Position numbers and translations under genes: made by a program. Source: Diphasiastrum complanatum (Eukaryota; Streptophyta; Lycopodiopsida; Lycopodiales; Lycopodiaceae). From it: DNA of 64,000 nt. Under the pieces are notes generated by a model, which was not told the DNA's origin, did no database searches, and worked only from the letters and a program-made list of their open reading frames with translations. The stretch covers positions 25,918,400-25,982,399 of the forward strand of contig CM055092.1 of NCBI GenBank assembly GCA_029204225.1, given 5' to 3'. Of this stretch, positions 5,887-59,717 are shown in pieces (the stretch's first letter is position 1; each line of letters opens with the position of its first letter).

Positions 5887-6849
5887 TGATGGGGAATCAG
5901 TCACGATTCGCGAAGGCGAATCCGGCACGACTCTCTCTCTCTCTCCGCTCGGATGGAGTTCAGATGCGATCGTTGGGCACTACCAGCTGAATCGCTCCTA
6001 CAGTCCTCCAGAGTGTAGTCAGATATTACTGATCTACGTTCATACAATTAATACAGCATTCGACATAATTTCAGCCAAAGTGCGGAATTCAAGGGAACAA
6101 GAAAACTCAGACATATGAAATAAACAGCATATGCATTCGCATTCAAGATCAGACACAACTAGGAAGTCATCTATATTGATCTTTCTCTGATTTCTTCAAG
6201 CACTGCATACGAATCCACGCAGTGCGTTGGAGTGGGAGAAGCACAGTTCTCTCACGAGTAATAGTCTAGATTCACTAGCGGACAATTGGATCTTCTGATC
6301 CTAGACACAGAGCTCTTCTCGCACGCAGGCGGAGTTGCTGTCTGTAATTCGTCTTGATTGCTTACTAGCATCAGACTATTACATTACACTGTATGTGTAT
6401 TCTGTTGATCCATATGTCAAGTATCATCCAGTAAGTATGGTCTCTCTGTGTAAATCTAAGATTAGAGTGATTAAGCATCTACAACTAACCAGAGAATTAC
6501 AAGAGTGGCAGATTAGCCACGATCTAGGGGGTATTTGCTGACGTCATGCCATCATATCAGATTACTGTACTTCTGGGTACTTGCGTGATCTTTGGTGGTA
6601 CTCCTTGGAGCGTGAGCGCTGAACGGGTTTCATTTACCTCGTCTGCCTTCTTCCGTACTGGACCGTGAAGGAATCTCGTTCGTGGATCTTTCGTGTTCGC
6701 GAACCGTTCGTCTTCGTCTCCGTTGACTTTCGTGTTCGCGAAACTCTTCGTGTTTCGTGTCTCCAGATGTTCAGGTTCGCAAACATCTTTGTCAGGCGAA
6801 GAGCTGAAAGCTAGCAAGGCTTTGTAATCAGAAACATTTTGTTTCTTCA
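5887..6849 (-). repeat. Copia 3' LTR (963 bp)
   Basis: Matches 9844-10805 along its whole length with scattered substitutions and small indels, roughly 97% by eye. It is the 3' LTR because the polypurine tract abuts its inner edge. The pol reading frame continues about 290 bp into it before a stop near 6557. Confidence 0.93.
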
Positions 6850-7120
6850 GCTCCCTCTCAAAGCATGATAGCTTTACGATCCTGAGACTGCTCCTTTGCC
6901 TCTCAAAGAGTCCTTTGTCCAGGGCCTTTGTGAAGATGTCAGCAACCATGTCTTTCGTTCCTATGAAGGTGGTCTGCATCATCTTCTTTTCAATCAGATC
7001 CCTGATCAAGTGATACTTGATCGCAATGTGCTTCGTTCTAGAATGGATCCATTTGTCCTTTTTTGGACTTTCAATCGCCTCCTCGAATGTCTGTGGTTCG
7101 CCACTGAACCCGCAGAATTC
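6850..7120 (-). pseudogene. Copia RT/RNase H remnant across a deletion
   Basis: On the minus strand the text reads EPQTFEEAIESPKKDKW, the first few residues of a Copia reverse transcriptase, then immediately HSRTKHIAIKYHLIRD and KDMVADIFTKALDKG, the end of RNase H. Everything between, including the YVDD polymerase box, is missing. The joint lies around 7050-7060. The element cannot make its own polymerase and would need helper proteins. Confidence 0.88.
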
Positions 7121-8788
7121 TTATAATGTGGAAGCTGAGCTGTCTGGCACATATCTTGTTGGCGCTCTTCGTAGTCTTGTCGACCTTCTGGGAGATCCTC
7201 CTAGAACAGCTATGCCTTTGCCCTTGTCTGCTCTGCTCGGTCGGGAACCATCTTGGTTTACAGGAACTACGGCGGCAGGTTGCCTCTCGAACCTTTCTTC
7301 GTCAAATTCGTCTCTCGAATGGGAGACGACTCGAAAATCTTCGTTTTCGTGTTCGTCTGCTGCTCCCTCTATCACTGGCGGCAGGTCATAGTACTGTCTC
7401 TCCAGAACTTCGTAGCTGACAGAATCGTCGTTGGCCATTGTCCTGCTCTCGTCGAATTTGACATCCCCCACTGTTTTCACAGTGTTCGTGTCTGGCATGT
7501 AGACTCTGTAGTATGACGAATTGTTGTCATAACCTACCAGAAATCCCTGCTCGGCTTTCTCATCAAGCTTCTTTCGAAGCTTATCAGGAATATGTGCATA
7601 TGCTGCACAGCCAAAGATTTTGACGTGAGACAGGTTGGGCTTTCTACCCCACCATAGCTCACGTGGTGTCGTGTGAGGAACACCAGACTTGCATGTCCTG
7701 TTCAGGATGTATGCAGCTGTAGCTACTGCTTCAGCCCACAGTGCCCTTGGAGCTTTCGAATAGGCCATCATGCATTTGGCTGCTTCCATTAGGGTCCTGT
7801 TCTTTAGTTCAGCAACACCATTGTGCTGCGGTGTGTAGGCTGCAGTTCTTCTGTGAATGATACCACGATCATTGCAGAAGTCAATGAAGCGATTCGAGAT
7901 ATATTCGCCACCTCGATCCGTTCTGATCTGCTTCACCTTGCTGCCTGTACATCTCTCTGCCCAATTCACATATTCTGTGAATTCATCGAGTGCTTCAGAT
8001 TTATTCTGAATAAAATACACTCTGGCAAACTTGCTATAATCATCAATAAAGGTTATATAATACTTTGAACCTCCTACTAAGATCACGTTGAATGGTCCAC
8101 AGATGTTAGAATGCACTAGCTCCAGAATCTTGGTCGTTCTGTAGGAGTCTTTGACGAATGGAGTGCGCGACATCTTGCCTTTCAAACATGCATCATAGGT
8201 GGTCGAACTGGTTGCATTCGAGATGTTGACCCCTGTTATCGCTCCATGATGACTTGCCTGGTAAAGTGCCATTGAGTTCATGTGGCAGAGTCTTCTGTGC
8301 CACAGAGTGTCTGGCGAGTCGTCATGGGTCTGATGCATCTGATCTGCAGGTAGGCGTACCTTCAGATGATATAGGTTCCCTTTCCTTCTGCCTTGAGCTA
8401 TGAGAGTGATGGTATTGGCATCAATCACGTTGCATGCTTCGTTAGAAAACGTCACACGCATCCCTGCATCTGCTATTCTTGCTACAGAGAGCAAGTCTTG
8501 CTGCAGGGTTGGCACGAACAGAACGTCTTCGAGTCGTCTGTCTCTGCCGTTGGTGTTGAGCCACAGTGAACCAATGTCGTTCACTTCATGTCTAGATCCA
8601 TCTCCAAGAACTATGAATCTTGAGGGATCCGCACTTCTGAAATCAAACATTATTCGTCTTGATGTCACGAAGTGTGAGGTAGCTCCTGAATCTAGGATCG
8701 CCTCATGTGTGTCAGACGTTGATGTTGCGCACACATCTTCACAGATGTAGGCGGTCAAACAATTTCTGTTCGTTCTTTCTTCGCCCAT
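7121..8788 (-). pseudogene. Copia protease-integrase region
   Basis: A 555-codon open frame. Near the N-terminus is the protease box ILDSGATSHFV. It is followed by the GAG-pre-integrase zinc-binding region (LWHRRLCHMNS) and the integrase core with DRGGEY and GVAELKNRTL. The C-terminus is the charged linker before RT (STRLRRAPTRY). The first integrase catalytic position reads HSNICGP where the family has HSD or HTD, so the first Asp appears replaced by Asn. The next upstream frame (gag) is separated by a stop at 8870. Confidence 0.9.
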
Positions 8789-8869
8789 CTTCGAGCTCTC
8801 GGGCTCCTCGACATAGGAAGAACTATTGTTGTTCTCCTGTCTGTTCTGTGTTGATCAATTTCTTGGGTT

Positions 8870-9670
8870 CTAGCGGCAATCCATGGCTGCATGACCCTTC
8901 TTGTGGCAATGGATACACTCAATCTTGGGATTGAGCCAGAAGGTATCTACTGTAGGCCCGTCTCTTCTGCATCTCACACAGGTCTTCTTGTCTGTATCTT
9001 GTCGTTTTGACCTCCCTTTGGTCTTCCAGTTGCCCTTGCTTGTTCCCTCTGCTTGCTGGTCACGATCCTGCCTCTGATTGGACTCCCTCTTAGGCTTAAA
9101 TTGCTTCTTTGATTTTTCTTTGTTGTCGTAGAGGGCCTGGTCAGAACCATCTTTGTGATCCAGATGTTCTCTGGCCTCGACTTCCTCTCGAATCTCGACA
9201 AACGCCTTTTCGAGGTTCATGGCGGGATCTTTCGCGAGCAGGGTTCGTGTCGTCTGGAAAGATCTAGGTAAGGCTCTCAACAGGTACGAGAGCTGCTTCT
9301 CAGCTGACACTGCATTCTCTGCTCCAGAGTTATGTAGTGATAGAAACAGATCCTTCATGAGGTGAGGTCTTTTCCATCCCACTGTAGGTTCATCAGCTGA
9401 TCTTCCAGCATCATGATCTGACTTCTTGATTTCGTCAAAAATCTGGTGGGTAATGCATCCCACATCTCCTTGGCTTTGGAGAGTGTAGCCAGGTCAAGTG
9501 TAAGGCTATCTTCGATGGAAGATGATAGCAAGGCTACTGCCTTGTCGTTTTTCTCCCTCCATTCACGTAGCTCCTTGCCTATTGTTGTAGGCATTTCTTT
9601 TGTGCCATCCACCCAGGGGAAGAGTCCTTCGCCCTTGAGTATCAAAGATGTCTTAACTTTAGAAAGTTAG
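8870..9670 (-). pseudogene. Copia gag, frameshifted
   Basis: Two overlapping frames make up a Copia Gag: 9355-9645 (N-terminal helices, WREKNDKAVALLSSSI) and 8870-9463 (C-terminal half). The latter ends in a basic region and the zinc knuckle CIHCHKKGHAAMDC (CX2CX4HX4C). One frameshift in the overlap and a stop after the knuckle break the polyprotein. The protein would package element RNA. Confidence 0.85.
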
Positions 9671-9828
9671 ATCCTGAAGAATCAAGTATAGTGCATATCT
9701 TGCTTTGCATGCTGCTGATTGAAGCCATTGCTTCTTGAAGTTTGTTTCCTTGTTGATGGTTGATTGCCTGAATGCTTGGCCTCCTGGATCTGCTAGCTTC
9801 TTTTGGCTATGTCAGAATTTGACAGGGT

Positions 9829-9842
9829 GGGCTCCGATACCA
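9829..9842 (-). promoter_or_regulatory. Copia primer-binding site
   Basis: On the minus strand it reads TGGTATCGGAGCCC, one base from the 5' LTR end at 9844. It is close to the initiator tRNA-Met site and fixes the element's orientation. Confidence 0.88.
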
Positions 9843-9843
9843 C

Positions 9844-10805
9844 TGATGGGGAATCAGTCACAATTCGCGAAGGCGAATCCGGCACGACTCGCTCTCTCTC
9901 TCCGCTCGGATGGAGTTCAGATGCGATCGCTGGGCACTGCCAGCTGAATAGCTCCTACAGTCCTCCAGAGTGTAGTCAGATATTATTGATCTACGTTCAT
10001 ACAATTAATACAGCATTCGACATAATTTCAACCAAACTGCGGAATTCAAGGGAACAAGAAAACTCAGACATATGAAATAAACAGCATATGCATTCGCATT
10101 CAAGATCAGACACAACTAGGAAGTCATCTATATTGATTTTTCTCTGATTTCTTCAAGCACTGCATGCGAATCCACGCAGTGCGTTGGCATGGGAGAAGCA
10201 CGGTTCTCTCACGAGTAATAGTCTCGCTTCACTAGCGGACATTGGATCTTCTGATCCTAGACACAGAGCTCTTCTCGCACGCAGGCAGAGTTGTTGTCTG
10301 TAATTCGTCTTGATTGCTTACTAGCATCAGACTATGACATTACATTGTATGTGTATTCTGTTGATCTATAGGTCAAGTATCATCCAGTAAGTATGGTCTC
10401 TCTGTGTAAATCTAAGATTAGAGTGATTAAGCATCTACAACTAACCAGAGAATTACAAGAGTGGCAGATTAGCCACGACCTAGGGGGTATCTGCTGACGT
10501 CATGCCATCAGATCAGATTACTGTACTTCTGGTTACTTGCGTGATCTTTGGTGGTACTCCTTGGAGCGTGAGCGCTGAACGGGTTTCATTTACCTCGTCT
10601 GCCTTCTTCCGTACTGGACCGCGAAGGAATCTCGTTCGTGGATCTTTCGTGTTCGCGAACCGTTCGTCTTCGTCTCCGTTGACTTTCGTGTTCGCGAAAC
10701 TCTTCGTGTTTCGTGTCTCCAGATGTTCGAGTTCGCGAACATCTTCGTCAGGCGAAGAGCTGACAGCTAGCAAGGCTTTGTAATTAGAAACATTTTGTTT
10801 CTTCA
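9844..10805 (-). repeat. Copia 5' LTR (962 bp)
   Basis: Partner of 5887-6849. On the minus strand it starts TGAAGAAAC and ends CCCCATCA. It is followed outward by the target duplication CGTAT. Confidence 0.93.
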
Positions 10806-13726: not shown

Positions 13727-14408
13727 TGTTAAAAATTCACAATTCTAGCTTGACTAGTTTTGGTCATATGACTTGTAAATAGTTAGATGGTCATGATGTG
13801 GCTTGTCACACGTGCCAAATAGCACAGGATTCCATTCATAAGGATGTTCTCAAGTAGACCTAAGTGTTAGAACCTTTGGAATGAGTCCAAATTATGCTTA
13901 GATACGAGGGAGAAAAAATAGGAGCTATTTTTGGTAATTTTTGCATTGTTGAGGGATCTCCAAAATTCCAACCCTAACTTGGTAGGGATGAAAGATCCAC
14001 CAAAATTAGCATTAGGGATAGGTTTAGGGCTACTCATACCTGCCCAAAACCGTGATGGATCATGTATATATAGGTGATGATATCTCACCAAAATCAATCA
14101 AGCAATTTCATGTTTTTTCTCTCATAATGGTGCAATTGCTCTCTATGTTCATAATTGTTTGAGTACTTGTGATTACTAATGATTATAGGATTGAATGTAG
14201 GTCTGGTGTACAGTACTCAGACTGTGGGAGGCCGTACTTTCACACGTGTGAAGCCTTCTTCAAGGATTTGGGCCATTTAGTGAGGTTCAAGCATAGATTT
14301 TTGATGGATTTTGATGGTTCAACTTGTGCTAATCTTATGAAATCATAATCTATTGTTTCCCTCATCATTTCAAGTGTTTTAGGATCCTTATTTGCTGTAA
14401 TTTTTACA
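13727..14408 (+). repeat. Copia 5' LTR (682 bp)
   Basis: Starts TGTTAAAAATTCAC and ends TTTTTACA, directly before the primer site. A TATA-like GTATATATAGG lies near 14064-14076. A 76-codon antisense ORF in it is copied identically in the other LTR simply because the LTRs are alike. Confidence 0.92.
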
Positions 14409-14421
14409 TGGTATCAGAGCC
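14409..14421 (+). promoter_or_regulatory. Copia primer-binding site
   Basis: TGGTATCAGAGCC follows the LTR end with no spacer. It matches the initiator tRNA-Met 3' end. Confidence 0.92.
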
Positions 14422-15218
14422 TAAAGGCTGAAATGAGCTAAATCCTTGGTTTGCATTCAATTTGATCACAATTTTTGATCTAAATCTTGTGTAGATTGGA
14501 TCTTAGCATCTGTATTGATTCTAGAACTCAAAGTGAGTCAAATACATTGGAGATTGGTGTTGTGTGACTTCATTTGCAGGTGTTTAGGTGTCTAAAACCA
14601 GAGGCAAAGTTGAATTCAATTCACATTACCAAGATAGCAAGTTTTGCTTGCTCCAAGCATTGATTTCTAAGCGAGTTTTGGAGGTGATTTCATAGAGAAG
14701 GCTTTCTAGCATTCAAGGAGAGGGAAGATCAGAGTTTTGGGGAATCTTCAAGGCTGTTCTAAGGTGTAGTAGGCACCTCCTAAAGTGATTTAGGTTCAGT
14801 CCAACCATTGCTTGACTTATGCACCAAATTAGATCAATTTTTCATCAATTTTGATCATTTTTTGCTTGTGATTGGATAGTAGATTGTGTTGCATCCTCAT
14901 TAAGTTCCATTTAGATCTTTTACAAGTGATTTTGGAAGTATATTAGGTTGCTGAAATTCACTCTTGATCAGATCATTTGGAAGCTTTAATGTTCTTTATA
15001 GAAAGAGGGGCAATTCTACTAGTATTGTCTACTTCAATCAAGCAAGTGCATTGTTTCTAGTATTCTATGATTTGATTTTGTTAGAGATCATTCTTAGATC
15101 TTTATAGGAAGTCTATTACTGATCTTTTCAGGTCCCTAAGAAGTGGGATAAGTTAGACCTTCAATCAAATCAATAGAAGTAACCTTCATTTGTGTCAAGT
15201 CCTTGATTAGGAGACTAG

Positions 15219-17669
15219 ATGGCATCTATAAATGCATATCTTTTGGATACTAATGAAAGGCTCAACAAAACTAACTATTCCATATGGAAAGTTAGAATGG
15301 AATCTATCATGATCATGCAAGATCTGATGGAAATTGTAAATGGTAAGGAGGGTGAACCTATTCATCCTCAAGAAAAAGCCAAATACATCAAGAGGTGCAA
15401 TGTTGCACTACATTGCATAAAAATGAATGTTGCAAATGAACTCTTAAGAGAGGTAGGAGATTGCACTTCAGCTCAAGATGCTTGGGAGACTTTGCAAAAG
15501 GTCTATGAATCCAAGAACCAAACTAGAATGTTAGCTTTGAAGAATCAAATCTATAGCAGCTATCAAAAGAAAGGAGAGAGTGCACATACTTTTGTCCTAA
15601 GAGTAAAGGAATTGAACAAAGAGCTAGCCTTTATAGGTGACCCTATCAAGGATGAAGAGCTTGTTCAACTCATATTGAATGGACTAAGCTTTGAATTTGA
15701 CAATTTGGTTCAGGGATATGCAATTATGGGTAAGCTACCCATACTTGAAGAACTCCAAGGCACACTCATGGCCGAGGAATCAAGAAGGAGCCAAATGCAA
15801 GAGAGGATGGATAGGCTTTCCATCCAAGGTGGAGATGACCAAGCTCTCTTCACCAAAGGCAAAGGCAAGTCCAAAGGCAAAGGATCAACATTCAAGAAGT
15901 CTACAAAGCTTGAGGATCAAGAAGGACCCCCAAAGGCATCTCCATCAACCACCAAAGTCAAGAAGGACAAATCAAAGGTGAAGTGCTACTATTGTAGCAA
16001 GATGGGGCATTATGCCTCGGAATGCTTCAAGAGGAAGCAAGATCAAAGCCAAGCCAACATGAGCAAAGAGGAGGAGGAGGAGAGTTCACATGAGGACTCT
16101 CTCATGATGTCCATATTTTCTTCAACAAGCTTCAAAGGAGAAGATCCTTGGTGGATTGACTCGGGTGCTAGTTCACACATGACTAGTAAAAGGGAGTTTT
16201 TCTCTTCTCTCTTATCTTATGATGGACCTATAAAGTCTATCTATACAGCAAATGATGAAGCTTGTAAGATTGAAGGAGTTGGTAGCATTACCCTTTGCTT
16301 AGGATCTTCCAAAAAGATCAACATAGAAGGTGTTTTGTACATTCCTACAATAACAAAGAATCTACTAAGTGTTGGCCAAATGGTAGACAATGGTTTCAAT
16401 GTTGACTTTGCTTCAAATGAATGTTTCATCAAGAAGAAGGGTAAGATAGTGGCTAAGGGCACTAGACTTGGCAAACTTTATAAGCTGGATGCATTTGTGG
16501 ATACTAATGTTGTCATGTTGGCCGAGAAGAGCAAGATATCTACCTTTACTTTATGGCACAAAAGACTTGGACATGTCAACTCGGGTTCCATGGAGGCTAT
16601 GATCAAGGAGGAGTATGCTTTAGGCCTACCAAGGTCTATTGGGAAGGAAGACAAGGTTTGTGAAGCTTGTGCCTTATCCAAGGCACATAAGAAGGTGTTT
16701 CCTAACTCCATCACAAAGTCATCTCATCCTCTTGAACTCATACACTCGGATGTGCACATTGCTAGCACCAAATCTAATGGAGGTTCATCCATGTTTTTAA
16801 CCTTCATTGATGACTACTCAAGATATTGTTGGGTGTTCTTACTTTCTTTCAAGTCTCAAGTATTTGATACTTTTGTAAAGTTCAAGTTGTTTGTGGAAAA
16901 GCATCATAATCATAGCATCAAGATTCTTAGAAGTGACAATGGTGGAGAATTCATCTCCAATGAGTTCGAGGCCTTTTGTGAGGAGGAAGGGATCAAGAAA
17001 GAGACTTCTTGTCCTTACACTCTTCAACAAAATGGAGTTGCTGAAAGAAGGAATAGAACATTATGTGAATGTTCTAAGGCTTTCAGATTAGATGCTTGTT
17101 TGCCCAAATCCTTTTGGGGTGAGTCTCTTGTATGTGCAAACTACTTGATGAATAGGGTGTCTTGCAAAGCAATTGAAGGCAAAACTCCTTATGAGATGTT
17201 GTATGGAAAGAAACCCAATCTTAATCACTTGAAAGTTTTTGGGTGTATATGTTATGTGCATGTGCCATTGGAAACAAGAACCAAGGAGGATCCATCTTCC
17301 ACAAGAGGGATCATGCTTGGATATGCAAGCTCAAGCAAGGGCTACAAAGTCTATCTCCCATCCTTGAACAAATTTGTTGTTTCAAGGGATGTCATCTTTG
17401 ATGAACATCATATGCATATGCTTGAAGAAGGCTCAAGTGCTCAACAATCAAGAAGAAGATGGCCGAGGAGCAAGATCTTGGTTTTGAGGAGGAGCTCATG
17501 GAGGAGCAAGCACCAAACCCACCTATCACACCAAGGAGATCTTCAAGGGAAAAAGTGGAGCCATCAAGGCTCACATATCAAGGCAAAGGACAGCAAGTTG
17601 AGGGTATCTCATCCACTTCTTATGCTTTATCTAGTTTTGAAGAACCGTCTAATGTTGAAGATGCATTGA
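15219..17669 (+). CDS. Copia Gag-protease-integrase
   Basis: 816 codons. Gag starts MASINAYLLD and ends with a lysine-rich stretch and the zinc knuckle CYYCSKMGHYASEC (about residues 255-268). The protease box is WWIDSGASSHMT (about 312). Then come LWHKRLGHVNSG, and integrase with HSDV (about 509), RSDNGGEF (about 571) and NGVAERRNRT (about 608), so the D,D,E catalytic set is intact. The biologically relevant frame ends near 17457; the last ~70 residues are out-of-frame read-through. One frame change in an AAGAAGAAG run separates it from the RT frame. The start is the first ATG after the leader and matches the right-hand Copia. Confidence 0.9.
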   Translation: MASINAYLLDTNERLNKTNYSIWKVRMESIMIMQDLMEIVNGKEGEPIHPQEKAKYIKRCNVALHCIKMNVANELLREVGDCTSAQDAWETLQKVYESKNQTRMLALKNQIYSSYQKKGESAHTFVLRVKELNKELAFIGDPIKDEELVQLILNGLSFEFDNLVQGYAIMGKLPILEELQGTLMAEESRRSQMQERMDRLSIQGGDDQALFTKGKGKSKGKGSTFKKSTKLEDQEGPPKASPSTTKVKKDKSKVKCYYCSKMGHYASECFKRKQDQSQANMSKEEEEESSHEDSLMMSIFSSTSFKGEDPWWIDSGASSHMTSKREFFSSLLSYDGPIKSIYTANDEACKIEGVGSITLCLGSSKKINIEGVLYIPTITKNLLSVGQMVDNGFNVDFASNECFIKKKGKIVAKGTRLGKLYKLDAFVDTNVVMLAEKSKISTFTLWHKRLGHVNSGSMEAMIKEEYALGLPRSIGKEDKVCEACALSKAHKKVFPNSITKSSHPLELIHSDVHIASTKSNGGSSMFLTFIDDYSRYCWVFLLSFKSQVFDTFVKFKLFVEKHHNHSIKILRSDNGGEFISNEFEAFCEEEGIKKETSCPYTLQQNGVAERRNRTLCECSKAFRLDACLPKSFWGESLVCANYLMNRVSCKAIEGKTPYEMLYGKKPNLNHLKVFGCICYVHVPLETRTKEDPSSTRGIMLGYASSSKGYKVYLPSLNKFVVSRDVIFDEHHMHMLEEGSSAQQSRRRWPRSKILVLRRSSWRSKHQTHLSHQGDLQGKKWSHQGSHIKAKDSKLRVSHPLLMLYLVLKNRLMLKMH

Positions 17670-19186
17670 ACTCCAAAGAATGGTATAAAGCTATGTTGGA
17701 TGAGTATGATGCCTTGATTGAGAATGAAACTTGGTTGCTTGTTGAGAGACCTCAAAGGAATGTAATAGGATGCAAGTGGGTCTTCAAGCTTAAGTTGAAT
17801 GCAAATGGGAGTGTTAACAAACATAAAGCAAGATTAGTTGCAAAAGTTTATGCTCAAGAGAGAGGGATAGACTATGAGGAAACTTTTGCACCCGTGGCCA
17901 AGATGGTCACAATAAGACTAATCATTGCACTTGCATCACATTTTGGATGGATTCTATGTCAAATGGATGTCTCTAATGCTTTCTTGAATGGTTTTTTGGA
18001 AGAGGATATCTATATGGAGCAGCCACAAGGGTTCATCAAGCATGGAATGGAGAACAAAGTATGCCATCTCCAAAGAAGCATCTATGGCTTGAAGCAAGCC
18101 TCGAGATCTTGGAATTCAAGATTACATTGCTATCTTATTTCACTTTCTTTTGTTCAAAGTGAATATGATCCCACTCTTTACATTAAGTTTGATGATGTTG
18201 GTATTGTACTTTTACTCATTTATGTAGATGACATCATCATTAGTGGAATTAGTGTTGATGGTATTGAAAAAATCAAGATAGATCTATCCTTAGAGTTCAA
18301 GATGGTAGATCTAGGGTGTCTTCACTTCATCTTAGGCATAGAAGTACTTAGAGGGTCTGATTTTATCTTTATAAGTCAAGTAAACTATGCTCAAAGTCTT
18401 TTGAAGAAGTTTAAGATGGAAGTATGCAAAAGTGTTGACACACCAATGGAGCAAGATGTAAAAGTGCCAAATGAAGATGATGAAAGATCCTTCATGGACA
18501 TCACTTTGTTTAGGCAACTTATAGGTTCCTTAATGTGGATCACTATAACTAGACCAGATCTTAGCTTTAGTGTATGTAGGTTGAGCCAATCCATGCAAAA
18601 GCCATTGAATATCCATTGGAAAAAGACTAAGAGGATTCTAAGATACATCTCGGGTACATTGGATTTTGGGATTCTATATAGAGGAGATGTGATTAACCTT
18701 CATGCATTTAGTGACTCAGATTTTGCAGGGGACAAGAGGGATAGAAAATCAACAAGTGCCTATTCAACTTTCATAGGAGAAGGTGTGGTTTTATGGCTTT
18801 CAAAAAAGCAAGAAACTATATCTCTATCTTCAACCGAGGCCGAGTACAAAGCTTTGACAACCACTACAAAGGAGGTACTTTGGATCAAGAGATTATTGGT
18901 GGAACTAAAGATCATGGATTCAGAGGAGGCACCAATCATCTACAATGACAATATATCAGCCCAACACCTTGCATCTAACCCAATCTTCCATGCAAGATCT
19001 AAGCACATTGAGATATGCCATCACTTTGTGAGAGAAATGGTGCAAGCCAAGGAGATTGCTTTGGAGCATGTTCCAAGCAATGAATGTGTAGTTGATCTAC
19101 TTACTAAACCACTTCAAAAGACACCTTTTATGAAGTTCAGATCATCACTTGGAGTGATTAGTAAAGCAATGATTGAACCAAGCTAG
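17459..19186 (+). CDS. Copia reverse transcriptase-RNase H
   Basis: 575 codons in the -1 frame relative to the upstream ORF. After an acidic linker come SKEWYKAMLDEYDAL, GCKWVFKLK and GIDYEETFAPVAKM, then the polymerase box LLIYVDDIIISG, LGIEVL, and RNase H with SDSDFAGDKRDRKSTS and EYKALTTTTKEVLWI. It ends in VVDLLTKPL. RT makes element cDNA and RNase H removes the RNA template. All main motifs look intact. The natural protein is probably one polyprotein with 15219-17457; the ATG at 17459 is unlikely to be a true start. Confidence 0.9.
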   Translation: MAEEQDLGFEEELMEEQAPNPPITPRRSSREKVEPSRLTYQGKGQQVEGISSTSYALSSFEEPSNVEDALNSKEWYKAMLDEYDALIENETWLLVERPQRNVIGCKWVFKLKLNANGSVNKHKARLVAKVYAQERGIDYEETFAPVAKMVTIRLIIALASHFGWILCQMDVSNAFLNGFLEEDIYMEQPQGFIKHGMENKVCHLQRSIYGLKQASRSWNSRLHCYLISLSFVQSEYDPTLYIKFDDVGIVLLLIYVDDIIISGISVDGIEKIKIDLSLEFKMVDLGCLHFILGIEVLRGSDFIFISQVNYAQSLLKKFKMEVCKSVDTPMEQDVKVPNEDDERSFMDITLFRQLIGSLMWITITRPDLSFSVCRLSQSMQKPLNIHWKKTKRILRYISGTLDFGILYRGDVINLHAFSDSDFAGDKRDRKSTSAYSTFIGEGVVLWLSKKQETISLSSTEAEYKALTTTTKEVLWIKRLLVELKIMDSEEAPIIYNDNISAQHLASNPIFHARSKHIEICHHFVREMVQAKEIALEHVPSNECVVDLLTKPLQKTPFMKFRSSLGVISKAMIEPS

Positions 19187-19191
19187 ATAGT

Positions 19192-19200
19192 GAGGAGGAG
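19192..19200 (+). promoter_or_regulatory. Copia polypurine tract
   Basis: GAGGAGGAG-type purine run directly before the right LTR. It is the usual plus-strand primer in LTR elements. Confidence 0.8.
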
Positions 19201-19707
19201 TGTTAAAAATTCACAATTCTAGCTTGACTAGTTTTGGCCATATGACTTGTAAATAGTTAGATGGTCATGATGTGGCTTGTCACACGTGCCAAATAGCATA
19301 GGATTCCATTCATAAGGATGTTCTCAAGTAGACCTAAGTGTTAGAACCTTTGGAATGAGTCCAAATTATGCTTAGATACGAGGGAGAAAAAATAGGAGCT
19401 ATTTTTGGTAATTTTTGCATTGTTGAGGGATCTCCAAAATTCCAACCCTAACTTGGTAGGGATGAAAGATCCACCAAAATTAGCATTAGGGATAGGTTTA
19501 GGGCTACTCATACCTGCCCAAAACCGTGATGGATCATGTATATATAGGTGATGATATCTCACCAAAATCAATCAAGCAATTTCATGTTTTTTCTCTCATA
19601 ATGGTGCAATTGCTCTCTATGTTCATAATTGTTTGAGTACTTGTGATTACTAATGATTATAGGATTGAATGTAGGTCTGGTGTACAGTACTCAGACTGTG
19701 GGAGGCC
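19201..19707 (+). repeat. Copia 3' LTR, truncated
   Basis: Matches the first 507 bp of the left LTR with two substitutions, then stops abruptly at GGAGGCC. The missing 175 bp imply a deletion or recombination after insertion. Confidence 0.9.
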
Positions 19708-20205: not shown

Positions 20206-21480
20206 CTAAAGATAAAGAGACTCTCGAGCGTTTTCCTTTTTGACAATACCCAAAAGTTTTTGTATTCGAACTCCCATGAGGAAATGCTAGTGAACATATT
20301 GTTTGCCGAATAAATTATTTGGAGTTGTGCTAATAAACATCCCATTCCATAACCATAGCTTTACAAGCATCACTGGAATAAACTTGTTTACAAGTCATAA
20401 CTAATAACAAGAGTAGTTTAGAGTAATTGAATGGAATTACAGTTAAGGAGCAAAGTGAGATTTCTATGACTAGAAATGCAATTAAGTTAGCTTCAAATAG
20501 AGAATAAAGTGCAGTAAAAAACACAAGCTTATACAAATGAAACGAATGATATGTGGTTGTGAACTCTACAGATCTATCAGTATAAGCTCAGAACTTTCTT
20601 GGAGCCAGTAAGGAGTGATAAATATTGTTATTAAATTCTTAAATGGCCCAAAGGCTATACAGATAAAACAGAAGTGCCAAATCTGATACAATAAAACTGG
20701 AACTAGTAAAAAAATTGTTCTAAAAATTTTAAAAACTACCACTTCTATGTTCTAGAAAATAGTCCTACAGACTTGCAACTCTTCTTGCAGCTAAACAATT
20801 GTTGCATGCGTGATTCATGTTACAACAAATATGTAATTAGTTTCCGAAGGAATGGTATTTAGAGCTGCAAAAGAAAAGACAACACTAGCCCCAGAAAAAG
20901 ACTCACATTGATGAACAAAGGAGAAATGGCACAGTAGAAAGCTTAACACTGAGAAGGAGATGAGCCTTGTTTGAGGAACAGAAGAAGGAACTTCAGTAGG
21001 AGGTGCGGGCGGACCTGATATCGGAGCTTTTACTGGAGTATCTATCGGAGTGGACATTGCAGTACGGAGAAGTCCACAACGATAATCTTCATCAGCTCAG
21101 TGGATATTCTGATGCTGGTTCCTCTTGGTCTCCGATTATGTGTAGCCATTAGTCCAAAATATGTTTACGCAAGCTCAGAATGGAGAGAATGAAGAGAATG
21201 AGAGGTAGACCTATGAATGACAATCCAAAATATATCTATGGAAGCTAAAAACAGAGGGAATGAAGAGAATGAGAGGTATACCTAAGAATGACAAGAAGTT
21301 CCTAAACTACAAGAATTAGTTAACTACAGTTTACGACTATTGACATCAAATCAACTCGAGTGTACAAATATGGGCAATAAAAGAGTATTCGGGCAGTAAC
21401 TGTGGTCCAATCACAATCGTTTGTTTTGCCCGACGGGATTTTTGAAAATCACAAAAACTTGGCCGAGGAAGGCAAAAACG
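20206..21480. other. Intergenic with a 72-bp duplication
   Basis: AT-rich with no recognised gene. About 21151-21293 is a diverged tandem duplication of ~72 bp sharing GAATGAAGAGAATGAGAGGT. A minus-strand ORF at 20815-21057 starts with a proline-rich stretch (APISGPPAPPTEVPSSVP) but has no recognised domain or supporting splice sites. Confidence 0.4.
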
Positions 21481-23401
21481 AAAGTAAAGCTTGTAAAGGT
21501 AACTTTACAACATCCACCCCACCTTTATAAAATCTGATGTCCTCATCAGATGTCAGATTAAAGTAAAGGTGTCTCCCAATTAAAATAACTATACATTTAA
21601 GCTACTTGGCACAGTACTCAATTTACTAGCCACTTTTTATTAACATTGAAGCTGGCACACCACAAGTCGGAGGCTCAGCTCTTTGTACTGAAAAATTACA
21701 TAACTTGAAAATATCTCTTTGTCTGGGAAAAGCGTAGATTTTATATCGCTTACGTGAAACCCAATAACCTTATTAAATTGGTGACAAAGGCCTTTCTGTG
21801 AAATGTTCGCCCCTGTCGCTTCTGACTTTTTGACTTTGGAACTCCTTTGAGCTCCTGATTAGTCCTTGATGCACTTTGTATTGAGCTCCCTGAGCTCCAA
21901 ATTTGATCAGTTCCGCACAAGTATCGAGGCTCCCTGAGCCAAAGGATTTATCGTTTGATTGTCCACTTTATGGTCCACTCCATGCCTTGTTGCTTCTGCA
22001 CCTTGATTTCTCTCCTTGTCCCAACCTGATCTTGATACTTTTCCTTCTTGGCTCTTTAAGGTAGGCAAAGATTGAGTACTCCGCAATGCACCTCTCACTT
22101 AGCTTGAATTAGCTCTTTGAATCAGCCCAAATGTAACCATTGACCTCGTGGAGAGCCAAAGGGTCACACCAGTTTGATCTGCATACGAACTATCTCTTCG
22201 GGTTTGTTTGAAGCACCATGTCTGTCGCGCAAAACTTGACTTTTACAATTCCATCACTGGTCAGTTGCCTCACAGTCAAAACAAGAAGTGTACATCGAGC
22301 TTGGCTTCAAGTAGCTCTCTTTGAATCAGACACATGCACCCAGAGTTTGCACTAGTCCGATCTCAACACGAACTGTCCCTTAGCGTCCGTTCGAAATACC
22401 AAGTCTCTCATGCAAGACTCAACTATCACCCATGCTCAGTGAGTTTCAGTTCCGAAGGTGGCCGTCCCAAATGAAGACCAACTGTTCCATAGAAGATCTC
22501 CCCTGAAATTGCCCTTTCCAACTTTTGACTTCTTGCTTGCGTCTGGTGGGCGTTGTCGCAAATGAAACTAATCCAAGAAACATGCTAGCCATCCATCCTT
22601 TGCAAACATTGAGTTGTTTCGTTGCCGTTCACGTGCGAGTACTTGAACCTGCAAATTCGCCCCACAGATTCTGTAGTCCTCTTTGTTTGATAGTATCAGC
22701 CTTCAAAAGAAAGGTTCCTTCTCGAGCCATCAGCTCCTTGTATCACAAGCAATCATGCAAACCAGGCAAAGCATGAGTACAGAGACTCACCACGAATACA
22801 TGCAAGCAAGACACTCAGGCAGGTTTACTAACAGGTAACAAAGACAAGGTCCCCCTTTGAGATGGTCCTGCCAACGGACCTTTTCCTGGCCGCACCCATA
22901 CAAATCGATCACAGAATCAGCCCACATAGGACACCCCTCCAACTATCCGTGCTTTCACCATTAAGAAGCACATTGCCTCAGTCACGCCCCACCACTTTTT
23001 GGTCGATAGCCCTTATAGCTAAACGATCGGTAGCTATCCCGCACCGGCAGCTAACCACCCGTGCTTTACACCCGAATTCGAACAGCATCTCTGTATCAAT
23101 GGTTAACCCGTACAGTTCGAATATGTCGTCCCGCACCCCACAAGGCACAGACCGTGCTTACACCAACCTAATGGCAGCACACTACCTCATTTGTCCTACG
23201 TGCATACAGCGCCAGGCTCGAACTGTGAGAACTGACAGTGCTTACACGTCAAGGGCAGCATCTTGACTCATCAAGTCCCCCGTCCTGTCGACCACCCCGA
23301 TCGTGGACGCACCCGTGCTTACACTGTGGGCAGCACCTTGCACATGATGAACCCCAAACAGTGGCCATTTCCGTGAGATCCGCATAGCTGACCGGCCAGT
23401 C

Positions 23402-23414
23402 GGCTCTGATACCA
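23402..23414 (-). promoter_or_regulatory. Primer-binding site of copy A
   Basis: GGCTCTGATACCA on the + strand, i.e. TGGTATCAGAGCC on the element strand, just inside the LTR. Confidence 0.85.
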
Positions 23415-23416
23415 CA

Positions 23417-24632
23417 TGTAGCGCAGGCATCCCAAAGGGAGCCGTGAACCACAACTTAGCTTCCCAGCCTTCAACTCTTGCCATCCAAACTCACTTGACA
23501 TACAAGAAACCAACTCGCCAACAACAATCAGACTTAACCAACTTGAAGTTTCAAAAACCAACATTGAGATCCAACCTGGCGCCATGCCAGATCGGGGGTC
23601 CCGATGAGGGTGACTTCCCTCCAAGCAAGCCGCCCGACATACATCAAACTTGACCAACTCGAAGCTTCGTTACAAACGAGTAACATCCATTCCAAGCAAG
23701 CGGTCTGACTTACATCAGACTTAACCAACTGAAAGCTTCGTCACGAGCGCTGGAAGCCAACCTGGCGCCACATCAGACTGGATAGCCATAAACATGTAAC
23801 TTCCACCCAATCAAGCCATCCAACTCAGCCGACAGGTTAGAGCTCGTTCCCCAAGAGCTAAACCCATTCACGTTCATGCAAGGAACACTCAGAACCACAA
23901 GCCGCGCAGATATGGAGACAACCAATTCCTGGACCAAATGGTCCCGACAGCATACCGCTGGCGCCACGGACCAAATGGTCCCGACGGCATACCGCTGGCG
24001 TCCTGGGATACGACCCTCAACTATGTGCCAACTTAAAAATTTTGAAGCGGCCTTACAACTGGCACTTTTACCGAACACTGAAACCCAGAAGGTAATCAGA
24101 GTCAGTTTGAGGAAAATCCCACTTTATTGATAAATCTGAGAAGGTTACATTTCAAGTGTGTGACCGACCCTAGTCTCCGGGGCGCTAGCATGCCAAGGCG
24201 AGAGCCATGACAACATTCCAGCAAGGGAGGCTGAGACTTGGTTGGAGCTCGCCCTGAGTCGCAACCCGCACTCCCCTATAGTATTGGTGGGATTCGGCAC
24301 CCCCCCTCATAGCAAGTACTCTACCCATGCTGGAAAAGCACATTTTTCTCTCTCTAGGATTTTCTCTCTCTAGAAGGTCATTTTCTCTCTTTAGAATTTA
24401 TTGATCCCCAGGCTTCCTTTAATCATGCCTAGATCGTGTGAGGTGATTGCACATCGATCTAAGCTCTTTGGACTTCGCTAGAACCGATCAAAGATTTTCA
24501 GCCATAGGAACTTGGCGCCGACTAGATTTTGGTCACAGTGGCGCCGGGAGCAGCAGGGGCGCTGCTGGCGCCGGGGACAATGCTGGCGCTAGTGGCGCCG
24601 GAAGTAAAGCTTGTAAAGGTAGCTTTACAACA
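23417..24632 (-). repeat. 5' LTR of copy A (~1.2 kb)
   Basis: Shared with 55770-57012 in copy B in the opposite orientation. It contains a cluster of TGGCGCC sites (24510-24605), a TTTATTGATAAAT stretch complementary to an AATAAAG-type polyadenylation signal, a duplicated ~35-bp GACCAAATGGTCCCGAC unit (23930-24000), and 3-4 diverged ~75-bp repeats (23470-23780). Confidence 0.75.
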
Positions 24633-55215: not shown

Positions 55216-55769
55216 AATCAGCCAAGAATGCTAGTACCCTGGTACTTTACATTAATAAACTTTGTCAATCTACGTGGCATTCCTTAAAGGGTCTTTTTTG
55301 GATTCAGAATTCTTCTAATGTCCATTAGAGAATAGAAGCAAACCACAACACAAGAAATCTCCCTTCAATTAGGCGCGCTCTCTCTCTCTCTTATAGATGG
55401 CCAATGACACACTCCAAAGCACTATGGAATGCCCACACAAGCCATTGAAAAAAGAGGAATCAATGGAAGGAGAGGCCCACAAGTTAGTGGAATGTCAAAT
55501 GACACCTTCCATAACTTATGGTTCTTGATTATAACCTCTTGGGTTCTTTAGGAGCATCTTGGGACCCTAGTAGGTGTGTCCTCCTACTAGTTCCCCATGA
55601 CTCTTATGTGATGGCTAACTTTGTTCCAAGGACTATAATGTGATCATGGCTCAAGGTTGAGGCCCAAGGTATAGGAAAATGACCAACACCCATGGTAAGA
55701 TCCTCCTAACACCTCACTAGGTTCCATACCTCCATCCAAGGCATAGACACCTACATGCTCTTATCCAAT
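55216..55769. other. Unassigned flank of copy B
   Basis: On the minus strand it has a CTATAAGAGAGAG motif at about 55380-55396, and TGTTGGTCATTTTCC at about 55691 that could start an LTR. No partner copy was seen, so no element is claimed. Confidence 0.3.
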
Positions 55770-57012
55770 TGTTGTAAAGCTATCTTCATAAGCTTTACTT
55801 CCGGCGCCATTGGAGCCAGAATTGTTCCCGGTGCCAGCAGCACCCCTGCTGCTCCCGGCGCCAATGGCACCGACGCCACTCCCAGTGCCACTGTGACCAG
55901 AATCCAGCCGGCGCCAAGTTCCTATGGTTGAAAATCTTTGATCGGTTCTAGCGAACTCCAGAGAGCTCAGATCGATGTGCAATCACCTCACACGATCTAG
56001 GCATGATTAAAGGAAGCCTGGGATCAATAAAATCTAGAGAGAGAAAATGACTTTCTAGAAAGAGAAAATTATAGAGAAAAAAAAACGTGCTTTACCAGCC
56101 TGGGTAGAGTGCTTGGTATGAGGGGGGGTGCCGAATCCCACCAATACTATAGGGGAGTGCGGGTTGCGACTCAGGGCGAGCTCCAACCAAGTCTCAGCCT
56201 CCCTTGCTGGAATGTTGTCATGGCTCTCGCCTTGGCATGCTAGCGCCTCGGAGACTAGGGTCGGTCACACACTTGAAATGTAACCTTCTCAGATTTATCA
56301 ATAAAGTGAGATTTTTCGCAAACTGACTCTGATTACCTTCTGGGTTTCAGTGTTCGGTAAAAGCGCCACTTGTAAGGCCGCTTCAAAATTTTTAAGTTGG
56401 CACATAGCTGAGGGTCGTATCCCGGGATGCCAGCGGTATGTCGTCGGGACCATTCGGTCCGTGACGCCAGCGGTATGCTGTCGGGACCATTTGGTCCAGG
56501 AACTGGTTGTCTCCATATCTGTCGCGGCTTGTGGTTTTGAGTGTTCCTTGCATGAACGTGAATGGGTTTAGCTCTTGGGGAACGGGCTTTAACCTGTTGG
56601 CTGAGTTGGATGGCTTGCTTGGGTGGAAGTTACCTGTTTATGGCTGTCCAGTCTGGCGTGGCGCCAGGTTGGCTTCCAGCGCTCATGACGAAGCTTTCAA
56701 TTGGTTAAGTCTGATGTAAGTCAGACCGCATGCTTGGAATGGATGTTACTCGTTTGTAACGAAGCTTCGAGTTGGTTAAGTTTGATGTATGTCGGGCGGC
56801 TTGCTTGGAGGCAAGTCACCCACATCGGGACCCCCGATCTGGCATGGCACCAGGTTGGATCTCAATGTTGGTTTTCGAAACTTCAAGTTGGTTAAGTCTG
56901 ATCGTTGTTGGCGAGTTGGCTGCTTGTATGTCAAGTGGGTTTGGATGGCAAGAGTTGAAAGCTAGGAAGCTAAGTCGTGGTTCCCGGCTCCCTTTGGGAT
57001 TCCTGCGCTACA
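55770..57012 (+). repeat. 5' LTR of copy B (~1.24 kb)
   Basis: Matches 23417-24632 in reverse. It includes GGCGCC sites, an ATCAATAAAG signal near 56300, the duplicated CAGCGGTATG(T/C)(C/T)GTCGGGACC unit at about 56428-56500, and 3-4 diverged repeats of ~75 bp containing AGTTGGTTAAGT(C/T)TGAT (56690-56910). Confidence 0.75.
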
Positions 57013-57014
57013 TG

Positions 57015-57027
57015 TGGTATCAGAGCC
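57015..57027 (+). promoter_or_regulatory. Primer-binding site of copy B
   Basis: TGGTATCAGAGCC, two bases after the LTR end; the same position as in copy A. Confidence 0.88.
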
Positions 57028-57106
57028 GACTGACCGGTCAGCTATGTGGATCTCACGGAAATGGCCACAGTTTGGGGTTCATCAAAACAACTGTTGTGCA
57101 AGGTGC

Positions 57107-57495
57107 TGCCCACAGTGTAAGCACAGGTGCATCCACGGTCGGGGTGGTCGACAGAACGGGGGACCTGATGAGTCAAGGTGTTGCCCTTGAGGTGTAAGAA
57201 CGGTCAGTTCTCGCGGTTCCGGCTTGGCGCTGTCTACACGTAGGACATATGAGGCAGTCTGCTGTCATTAGGTTGGTGTAAGCACGGTCTGTGCCTTGTG
57301 GGATGCGGGGCGACATATTCGAACTGTACGGATTAACCATTGATACAGAGATGCTGCTCGAATTCGGGTGTAAAGCACGGGTGGTTAGCTGCTAGTGCGG
57401 GATAGTTGCCGATCGTTTAGCTATAAGGGCTATCGACCAAAAAGTGGTGGGGCGTGACTGAGGCAATGTGCTTCTTAATGGTGAAAGCACGGATA
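57107..57495 (+). repeat. Five spaced GTGTAAGCACGG-like boxes
   Basis: Boxes begin near 57115 (GTGTAAGCACAGG), 57192 (GTGTAAGAACGG), 57276 (GTGTAAGCACGG), 57367 (GGTGTAAAGCACGGG) and 57480 (GGTGAAAGCACGG), spaced about 75-115 bp. Copy A has the same five in reverse near 23312, 23236, 23152, 23060 and 22948. The sequence between boxes differs, so this is a periodic motif rather than a simple tandem repeat. Role unknown. Confidence 0.7.
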
Positions 57496-59062
57496 GTTGG
57501 AGGGGTGTCCTATGTGGGCTAATTTTGTGATCAATTTGTATGGGCGCGGCCAGGCAAAGGTCCGTTGGCAGGACCATCTCAAAGGGGGACCTTGTCTTTG
57601 TTACTTGTTAGTAAACCTGCCTGAGTGTCTTACTTGTATGTATTCGTGGTAAGTCTTAGTACTCGTGCTTTGGCTGGTTTGCATGATTGCTTGTGATACA
57701 AGGAGCTGATGGCTCGAGAATGAACCTTTCTTTTGAAGGCTGATACCATCAAACAAAGAGGACTACAGAATCTGTGGGACGGATTTGCAGTTCAAGTACT
57801 CGCACGTGAACGGCAACAAAACGACTCAATGTTTGCAAAGGATGGATGACTAGCCTGTTTCTTGGGTTAGTTTCATTTTGCGACAACGCCCACCAAGACG
57901 CAAGCAGAAAGTCAAAAGTTAGAAAGGGCAATTTCAGGGGAGATCTTCTATGGAGCAGTTGGTCTTCATTTTGGGACGGCCACCTTCGGAACTGAAACTC
58001 ACTGAGCATGGGTGATATCTAGTATCAGTTGGGTTTTTCCTCAAAGGAGAAAGACTAGGATCCTCTTCAGAGATTGGCAACAAGTTGGATCGAGCCATAA
58101 TCCTAGCAGATGGGAAGCAAAGTGTTGGAAAGGCTTTTTGTCCGAAGAACTCTACTCTAAGTCCGATCAGCTGATTTTATAAGTGGAGGGGAACTATCAC
58201 ACACACCTCTCTCTTGGGGCAAATTTTGAATGAAAGTTGATCAAAACGGGGGCAAATTCAAGGTGATCTAGCCATACTCACACGAGAAGACTGGCGAACT
58301 TTGGACCTAATAAGTTGAAAAGTTTTTGTTGTGGAAAGGAAAGCTTGTTATTGGTTTTCTCTGGACCAGCAATGATGAGGAAACATATGAGTACGATGGC
58401 TTGTGTTACGTGTAAGGCAGCTGATCAATGAAGGAACTGTGAAAGTTGAGTCTTGCATGAGAGACTTGGTATTTTGAACGGACGCTAAGGGACAGTTTGC
58501 GTTGGGATCGGACTAGTGCAAACTCTGGGTGCATGTGTCTGATTCAAAGAGAGCTACTTGAAGCCAAGCTCAATGTACACTTCTTGTTTTGACTGTGAGG
58601 CAACTGACCAATGATGGAATTGTGAAAGTCAAGTTTTGTGCAACGGACATGGTGCTTCAAACAAACGCGAAGAGATAGTTTGGATGCGGATCAAACTGGT
58701 GCGACCCTTTGGCTTTCCACGAGGTCAATGGTTACATTTGGGCTGATTCAAAGAGCTACTTCAAGCTAAGTGAGAGGTGCATTGCGGAGTACTTAATCTT
58801 TGCCTACCTTAAAGAGCCAAGATGGAAAAGTATCAAGATCAGACTGGGACAAGGAGAGAAATCAAGGTGCAGAAGCAACAAGGCACGGAGTGGACCATAA
58901 AGTGGGCAATCAAACGATAAATCCTTTGGCTCAGGGAGCCTTGATACCTGTGCGGAACTGATCAAATTTGGAGCTCAGGGAGCTCAACACAAAGTGCATC
59001 AAGGACAAATCAGGAGCTCAAAGGAGTTCCAAAGTCGAAAGTCAAAAGCGACAGGGGCGAAC

Positions 59063-59717
59063 TGTGAAAATTGTCAACATTTCCTAGCTAGTTTGAGGCC
59101 TAAATTGGCTAAAATTGTAAATAGTTTTGGTTCTGGAGTTTAACACGTGTGAACCAGGCCACAATGTTTTTATTTACTGTATTTTTTCAGTATGATGAAG
59201 TGTCAAACTTCATACCCTTCAAAATGAGACCATTTTGATGTATTTTGGTCATATAAGCCATTTTTAGCTATTTTTCCTATATAGGGAATATCTAGGGTCA
59301 AGTACCTTCTAGAGAGAGGAGAGAGAGTCATCTTCCTCATCCATAAATAGTAGGGAAGTCGTGGAGAACAGGTTGGAGAAACCTTTTGTATGCTTCATTG
59401 AGATCAATAGATCATTGTCATTGTTTCTTCCTCCATTGAGAGCATTGTTGTGTGTATTGTCTTCAAGCTATTGTGTATGATCTTAGGTGCTTTCCAAAAG
59501 TGATAGGCTGATGTATTATGGATTGTATAATGCTATTTTGGGCCGCACTTGATGTTTATGGAAGTTTCCATTTGTGATAAATGCTTTTTGATCAAGTTCT
59601 TTGCATTCTAGGTAGCATAGAATGTGTTGCCAATTCCTAGCTTATGTAGTTTGGAGTGCAAGCATTCAAGCCAATGATCTTGGAGTTTAGATCCACTTAG
59701 GATCTGTATTTTTCACA
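59063..59717 (+). repeat. Copia 5' LTR (655 bp)
   Basis: Starts TGTGAAAATTGTC and ends TTTTTCACA, directly before the primer site. A TATA-like CCTATATAGGG lies near 59276-59286. Confidence 0.88.

What the first reader, a model, noticed from the sequence alone, without database searches (positions are those of the whole stretch)
57107..57495. Five GTGTAAGCACGG boxes at 75-115 bp spacing in both copies
A short motif recurs five times just after the primer site while the sequence between boxes varies, and the pattern is kept in copy A. It lies where packaging or dimerisation signals sit in retroelements, and it may define a trans-recognition signal of a non-autonomous family.
Basis: partly seen in the sequence, partly recalled or inferred. 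Interest (0 to 1): 0.72.

Follow-up and report, generated by a model that had tools for sequence, protein, structure and literature searches.

The report
Repeated boxes in noncoding plant retroelement
A plant jumping element that appears to encode no proteins carries five look-alike sequence blocks just after its copying start site, and these blocks, unlike most of the DNA between them, have stayed recognisable, which suggests a recognition signal, though its function is not proven.

Summary
Five GTGTAAGCACGG-like boxes lie on one strand at 57115, 57192, 57276, 57368 (one extra A) and 57481, with the same spacings (77, 84, 92, 113) in copy A on the minus strand; 0 of 200 shuffles of each leader reach four copies at one mismatch or fewer. 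The boxes are the 3' half of a bipartite block of about 35 nt, TGCTGCC–variable gap–GGTGTAAGCACGG. Blocks align between units (10 of 10 pairs in each copy); spacers mostly do not (0 of 10 pairs in B, 1 of 10 in A at p<=0.01). The host is an LTR retroelement (LTR 55770-57012, primer site 57015-57026) with no recognisable gag or pol. RNA folding gives no support beyond chance, and the candidate stem TGCT/AGCA shows no compensatory change. No further copies could be reached; the own-genome search did not complete. A packaging signal remains possible but unproven; a DNA-binding array or a passive repeat are close rivals.

The parts
55770..57012 (+). 5' LTR of copy B (TGTTGTAAAG...GCTACA, 1243 bp), with AATAAA near 56300 and degenerate repeats
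   Evidence: borders seen in the A/B alignment
57015..57026 (+). primer binding site TGGTATCAGAGC (initiator-Met tRNA type; TATCAGAGC is so described in PMC2829016)
57115..57126 (+). box 1, GTGTAAGCACAG
57192..57203 (+). box 2, GTGTAAGAACGG
57276..57287 (+). box 3, GTGTAAGCACGG
57368..57380 (+). box 4, GTGTAAAGCACGG (one extra A)
57481..57492 (+). box 5, GTGAAAGCACGG
57090..57494 (+). array of five bipartite blocks (TGCTG half plus box half) with mostly unrelated spacers
57013..59062 (+). internal region of copy B without recognisable genes, cut at 59063 by a nested Ty1-copia element
22947..23324 (-). the same five-box array in copy A, same spacings
21479..24632 (-). copy A of the element: LTR, primer site 23403-23414, internal region, purine-rich stretch and only the first 34 bp of a 3' LTR (21512-21479)

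Best explanation
The element is a LARD-like LTR retroelement of a land plant without genes of its own, so it must be copied by the proteins of another element. The five blocks in its leader most likely work like a multi-site cis-acting signal in its genomic RNA: each block brings the short arms TGCT and AGCA together around a loop of variable length that holds the GTGTA part, and five such sites in a row recruit the Gag protein of an autonomous partner, or a second RNA for dimerisation. Shown: the repeats, their bipartite make-up, one orientation, position after the primer site, lack of recognisable genes, likeness of blocks but not of most spacers between units.
For: Blocks are alike in 10 of 10 unit pairs in each copy, spacers in 0 of 10 (B) and 1 of 10 (A) at p<=0.01; in a simulation, spacers at about 71% identity are detected in 54-60 of 60 trials. 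Two other degenerate repeats of the same element are alike over 112 and 120 bp (68% and 71%), the first unevenly. All five boxes point the same way. All 12 invariant columns of the ten blocks fall in the TG(C)T part or the GTG.AAG(C)AC.G part, with a gap of varying length between. TGCT is the exact complement of AGCA; 35 of 36 cells of these four pairs are standard pairs over 9 distinct rows. No recognisable genes.
Against: Leader folding is no better than shuffles (74 of 100 and 39 of 100 fold as well). Single units are not consistently more stable than shuffles; the stem has pair probability about 0.1 in four B units and in A5, about 0 in B2, A1, A2 and A4, and is high (about 0.87) only in A3. 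No compensatory change, and the shuffle control cannot tell the stem from chance because its columns hardly vary. RNAalifold prefers another, weak hairpin inside the box, -1.37 kcal/mol. A against B gives no significant extra conservation of boxes, alone (p=0.60) or with flanks (p=0.25). The blocks were picked because they look alike. No partner element seen.
Confidence: 0.36

Rival explanations
1. The array is a set of DNA-binding sites for a host protein, acting as a downstream enhancer or insulator in the transcribed untranslated leader, as the Su(Hw) sites do in Drosophila gypsy or as repeated motifs are proposed to do in Sireviruses.
For: Box core GTG-TAAG-CAC is nearly dyad-symmetric (sequence). 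The gypsy insulator is a 460-bp stretch of 12 degenerate octameric sites in the 5' transcribed untranslated region (PMC7800606, passages). Sirevirus repeated motifs are palindromic and proposed as regulatory (PMC2829016, section read). No RNA structure signal is needed.
Against: Symmetry is broken in B2 (GTGTAAGAAC) and spacing changes in box 4 (GTG-N5-CAC). The TGCTG half lies at a varying distance, unlike a rigid DNA site. All five copies point the same way, although tandem duplication would give this too.
Confidence: 0.28
2. A passive remnant: a stretch of about 35 nt was multiplied by slippage or template switching during reverse transcription and has no function of its own.
For: The element holds other degenerate repeats (56605-56715/56791-56902 and 58400-58519/58583-58702). 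A against B shows no significant difference between boxes and spacers. Folding is not above chance. One spacer pair in A (units 3-4) does show similarity (3 of 500 shuffles).
Against: Nineteen of 20 spacer comparisons (10 in each copy) show no similarity at p<=0.01 while all 20 block comparisons with the same test reach 6 of 500 or less, so an evenly decayed 75-115 bp tandem repeat is not enough, unless the spacers have decayed below about 60% identity, where the test is weak.
Confidence: 0.3

Closest known systems
LARD (large retrotransposon derivatives) and other non-autonomous plant LTR elements
   Same: LTR, iMet-type primer site, internal region without recognisable genes; a full copy would be above 4 kb by inference (two LTRs of about 1.2 kb and 1.9-2.3 kb inside)
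   Different: Neither copy has two full LTRs in the window; no partner identified; a five-block leader array is not a feature I know of for LARDs (recall)
Sirevirus repeated-motif (RM) boxes
   Same: Many copies of a short motif in noncoding parts of plant LTR elements
   Different: 12 of the 13 listed Sirevirus RMs have a CGG-CCG core and all are palindromes, in LTRs and mostly before env (PMC2829016, section read); here the box is only near-symmetric and lies after the primer site. The junction CA-TG-TGGTATCAGAGC differs from the Sirevirus CA/ATTGG-TATCAGAGC
gypsy (Su(Hw)) insulator of Drosophila
   Same: A few hundred bases of spaced degenerate short motifs in the untranslated leader (PMC7800606, passages)
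   Different: Other motif, other kingdom, gene-bearing element, known DNA-binding protein

Membership tests
LARD-type non-autonomous LTR retroelement | no gag/pol coding capacity | tested here: met
   22 stop-to-stop frames of 60 aa or more in 55700-59100, longest 145 aa; the 10 of them that reach into the internal region gave no Pfam match above cut-off (one sub-threshold match, 10 residues, E=0.0032). Frames of copy A and frames below 60 aa were not searched
LARD-type non-autonomous LTR retroelement | primer site directly after 5' LTR | tested here: met
   57015-57026 and 23403-23414, two bases after the LTR end
LARD-type non-autonomous LTR retroelement | two similar LTRs with target site duplication | tested here: inconclusive
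   copy A keeps only 34 recognisable bp of a 3' LTR; copy B is cut by a copia element and its 3' side is outside the window
LARD-type non-autonomous LTR retroelement | mobilised by an autonomous partner | not testable with these tools
   own-genome search did not complete
Sirevirus | 5' junction CA/ATTGG-TATCAGAGC and palindromic repeated motifs | tested here: not met
   junction here is CTACA-TG-TGGTATCAGAGC; the box is not a full palindrome
RNA packaging signal | stable or covarying RNA structure | tested here: not met
   two closely related copies only
RNA packaging signal | needed for encapsidation | not testable with these tools
   needs an experiment
gypsy-like insulator | bound by a DNA-binding protein and blocks enhancers | not testable with these tools
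   needs an experiment

The most novel reading that the evidence does not exclude
A five-site, sequence-specific trans-packaging code in the leader of a plant element without genes, shared with or copied from the leader of its autonomous partner, in which the number and spacing of short bipartite blocks decide capture by Gag.
Probability: 0.12. Interest if true: 0.75.

Novelty: new variant of a known kind. Interest (0 to 1): 0.4.

Why it matters
How gene-less plant LTR elements are recognised by the proteins of their helpers is an open question (my general knowledge). A discrete, countable array in the leader would give a direct target for deletion tests and a search handle for the helper. If it is instead a DNA-binding array, it would be a plant counterpart of the gypsy insulator and could affect nearby genes.

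Tried and rejected
Coding origin of the array: no long frame, no Pfam match above cut-off in the 10 frames that reach into the internal region; the TAA in boxes 1-4 lies in three different frames and box 5 has none. RNA families: none in the window at gathering score. Boxes elsewhere in the window: a profile of the 10 blocks finds those 10 and nothing else below E=0.79. Boxes after five other primer-site-like matches: best has 4 mismatches. A simple tandem repeat: Tandem Repeats Finder at score 40 lists nothing over the array. Relatives in public collections: one IMG/VR contig fits the loose two-box pattern (L001). That two-box pattern is reached by 0 of 200 shuffles of L001, but L001 was picked out of the whole collection for it; single boxes at <=2 mismatches occur three times in it, reached by 8 of 200 shuffles. 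Taken as chance, not proven so. The LTR/primer-site junction has 0 matches in viral contigs and genome contigs. These collections hold viral and prokaryote DNA, so no match says little for a plant element. Likeness of box 4 to the LTR tip (8-mer TGTAAAGC, 9 of 2000 shuffles on one strand; 7-mer, 75 of 2000 on the other) was found after the fact and rests on one box; not used.

Errors of mine: box 4 was placed one base late (57369, and likewise in A); with the right place gives the same 3/61 and 26/317. The comparison of flanked boxes (9/166 vs 20/212, p=0.17) used a wrong remainder; one search gives 9/166 vs 20/233, p=0.25. The structure string was one column off; one search replaces it.

Full report
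What is there. The window looks like land-plant DNA: it holds a DUF702 protein (SRS type, recalled) and an oleosin and several LTR retroelements. The finding lies in an element present twice, copy B at 55770-59062 (+) and copy A at 24632-21479 (-); BLAST matches them at 92.4% over 2250 columns and 95.0% over 625. In the global alignment 156 of 2825 aligned positions differ, 120 of them transitions.

Anatomy. The LTR of B runs from TGTTGTAAAG at 55770 to GCTACA at 57012 (1243 bp), followed by TG and the primer site TGGTATCAGAGC at 57015. The longest stop-to-stop frame is 145 aa, and the 10 frames of 60 aa or more that reach into the internal region have no Pfam match above cut-off. B is cut at 59063 by a Ty1-copia element with gag, integrase and reverse transcriptase domains. 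In A the element goes on for about 290 bp to a purine-rich stretch (AAAGGTGGGGTGGA) followed by TGTTGTAAAG, but only the first 34 bp of a 3' LTR can be recognised (21512-21479, 85% to the LTR of B). So no full pair of LTRs is seen and neither copy can be dated. B has 427 bp (58017-58443) that A lacks.

The boxes. Five boxes on the same strand start at 57115, 57192, 57276, 57368 and 57481 in B; A has the same spacings. Against dinucleotide shuffles of each leader, 4 copies at <=1 mismatch are reached by 0 of 200. Aligned, the ten units show two conserved parts: TGCTG, loosely preceded by TGAGGCA, and GGTGTAAGCACGG, with a gap of varying length between them. A profile of the units finds no eleventh member in the window below E=0.79.

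Conservation, test one, between copies. Boxes differ at 3 of 61 positions, spacers at 26 of 317 (p=0.60). With flanks (18 bases before, 3 after) 9 of 166 against 20 of 233 for the rest (p=0.25). But two copies that are probably decaying without constraint have little power: about 5% of 61 positions is 3.

Conservation, test two, between units. Local alignment scores of 35-nt blocks exceed shuffles in 10 of 10 pairs in B (at most 6 of 500 shuffles as high) and 10 of 10 in A (at most 5 of 500). Spacers (four between blocks and about 78 bases after the fifth): 0 of 10 pairs in B at p<=0.01 (lowest 90 of 500) and 1 of 10 in A (units 3-4, 3 of 500; next lowest 46 of 500). A simulation of evenly decayed spacers detects homology in 54-60 of 60 trials at about 71% identity, 35-47 of 60 at 62%, 13-28 of 60 at 54%. 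So the array is not an evenly decayed tandem repeat of modest age. The caveat is that blocks were chosen for their likeness, and that copies A and B are not independent.

RNA structure. Leader folds have z 0.68 (B) and -0.20 (A). Single units are mixed: of ten, A3 (9 of 300 shuffles as stable) is best, A4 (240 of 300) worst. The four pairs of TGCT/AGCA form in 35 of 36 cells but hardly vary, so they say nothing by covariation; the stem is likely only in A3 (pair probability about 0.87).

Literature. PMC2829016 (Sireviruses) was seen in passages and three sections, PMC7800606 (insulators) in passages. Paper searches for LARD, packaging, leader and related terms (listed: 2 of 2, 4 of 4, 15 of 75, 8 of 11, 10 of 32) showed nothing, by title and start of abstract, that describes such a leader array; none of the papers listed there was opened, so this is no proof that none is in print.

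Verdict. A real, unusual block array in the leader of a plant LTR element without recognisable genes. That it is a recognition signal is plausible; whether it acts as RNA (0.36), as DNA (0.28), or not at all (0.30) cannot be decided from two copies.

Noticed in passing
57170-57269: A and B differ at 16 of 100 positions here, against 140 of 2725 in the rest of the element; box 2 and most of the spacer after it are in this stretch. Possible mixing with another subfamily.
   Followed up: no
56605-56902: Degenerate repeat of about 112 bp inside the LTR (68% identity); also 2.2 copies of a 37-bp unit at 56422-56501.
   Followed up: partly
58400-58702: Degenerate 120-bp repeat (71%) in the internal region.
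   Followed up: partly
55803-55915 and 56660: The palindrome GGCGCC occurs 4 times in the LTR of B and 7 times in that of A, 11 of the 13 in the window; it recalls, loosely, the palindromic Sirevirus motifs.
   Followed up: no
55770-55803: The LTR tip holds TGTAAAG, in copy A also inverted (TGTTGTAAAGCTACCTTTACAAGCTTTAC); box 4 shares TGTAAAGC with it.
   Followed up: partly
21512-21479: Copy A has a purine-rich stretch and 34 bp of a 3' LTR, after which similarity stops.
   Followed up: partly
5887-10805 and 13727-19707: Two further LTR elements, with LTR pairs 96.6% and 99.6% identical; both carry copia-type domains, and the second looks recent.
   Followed up: no
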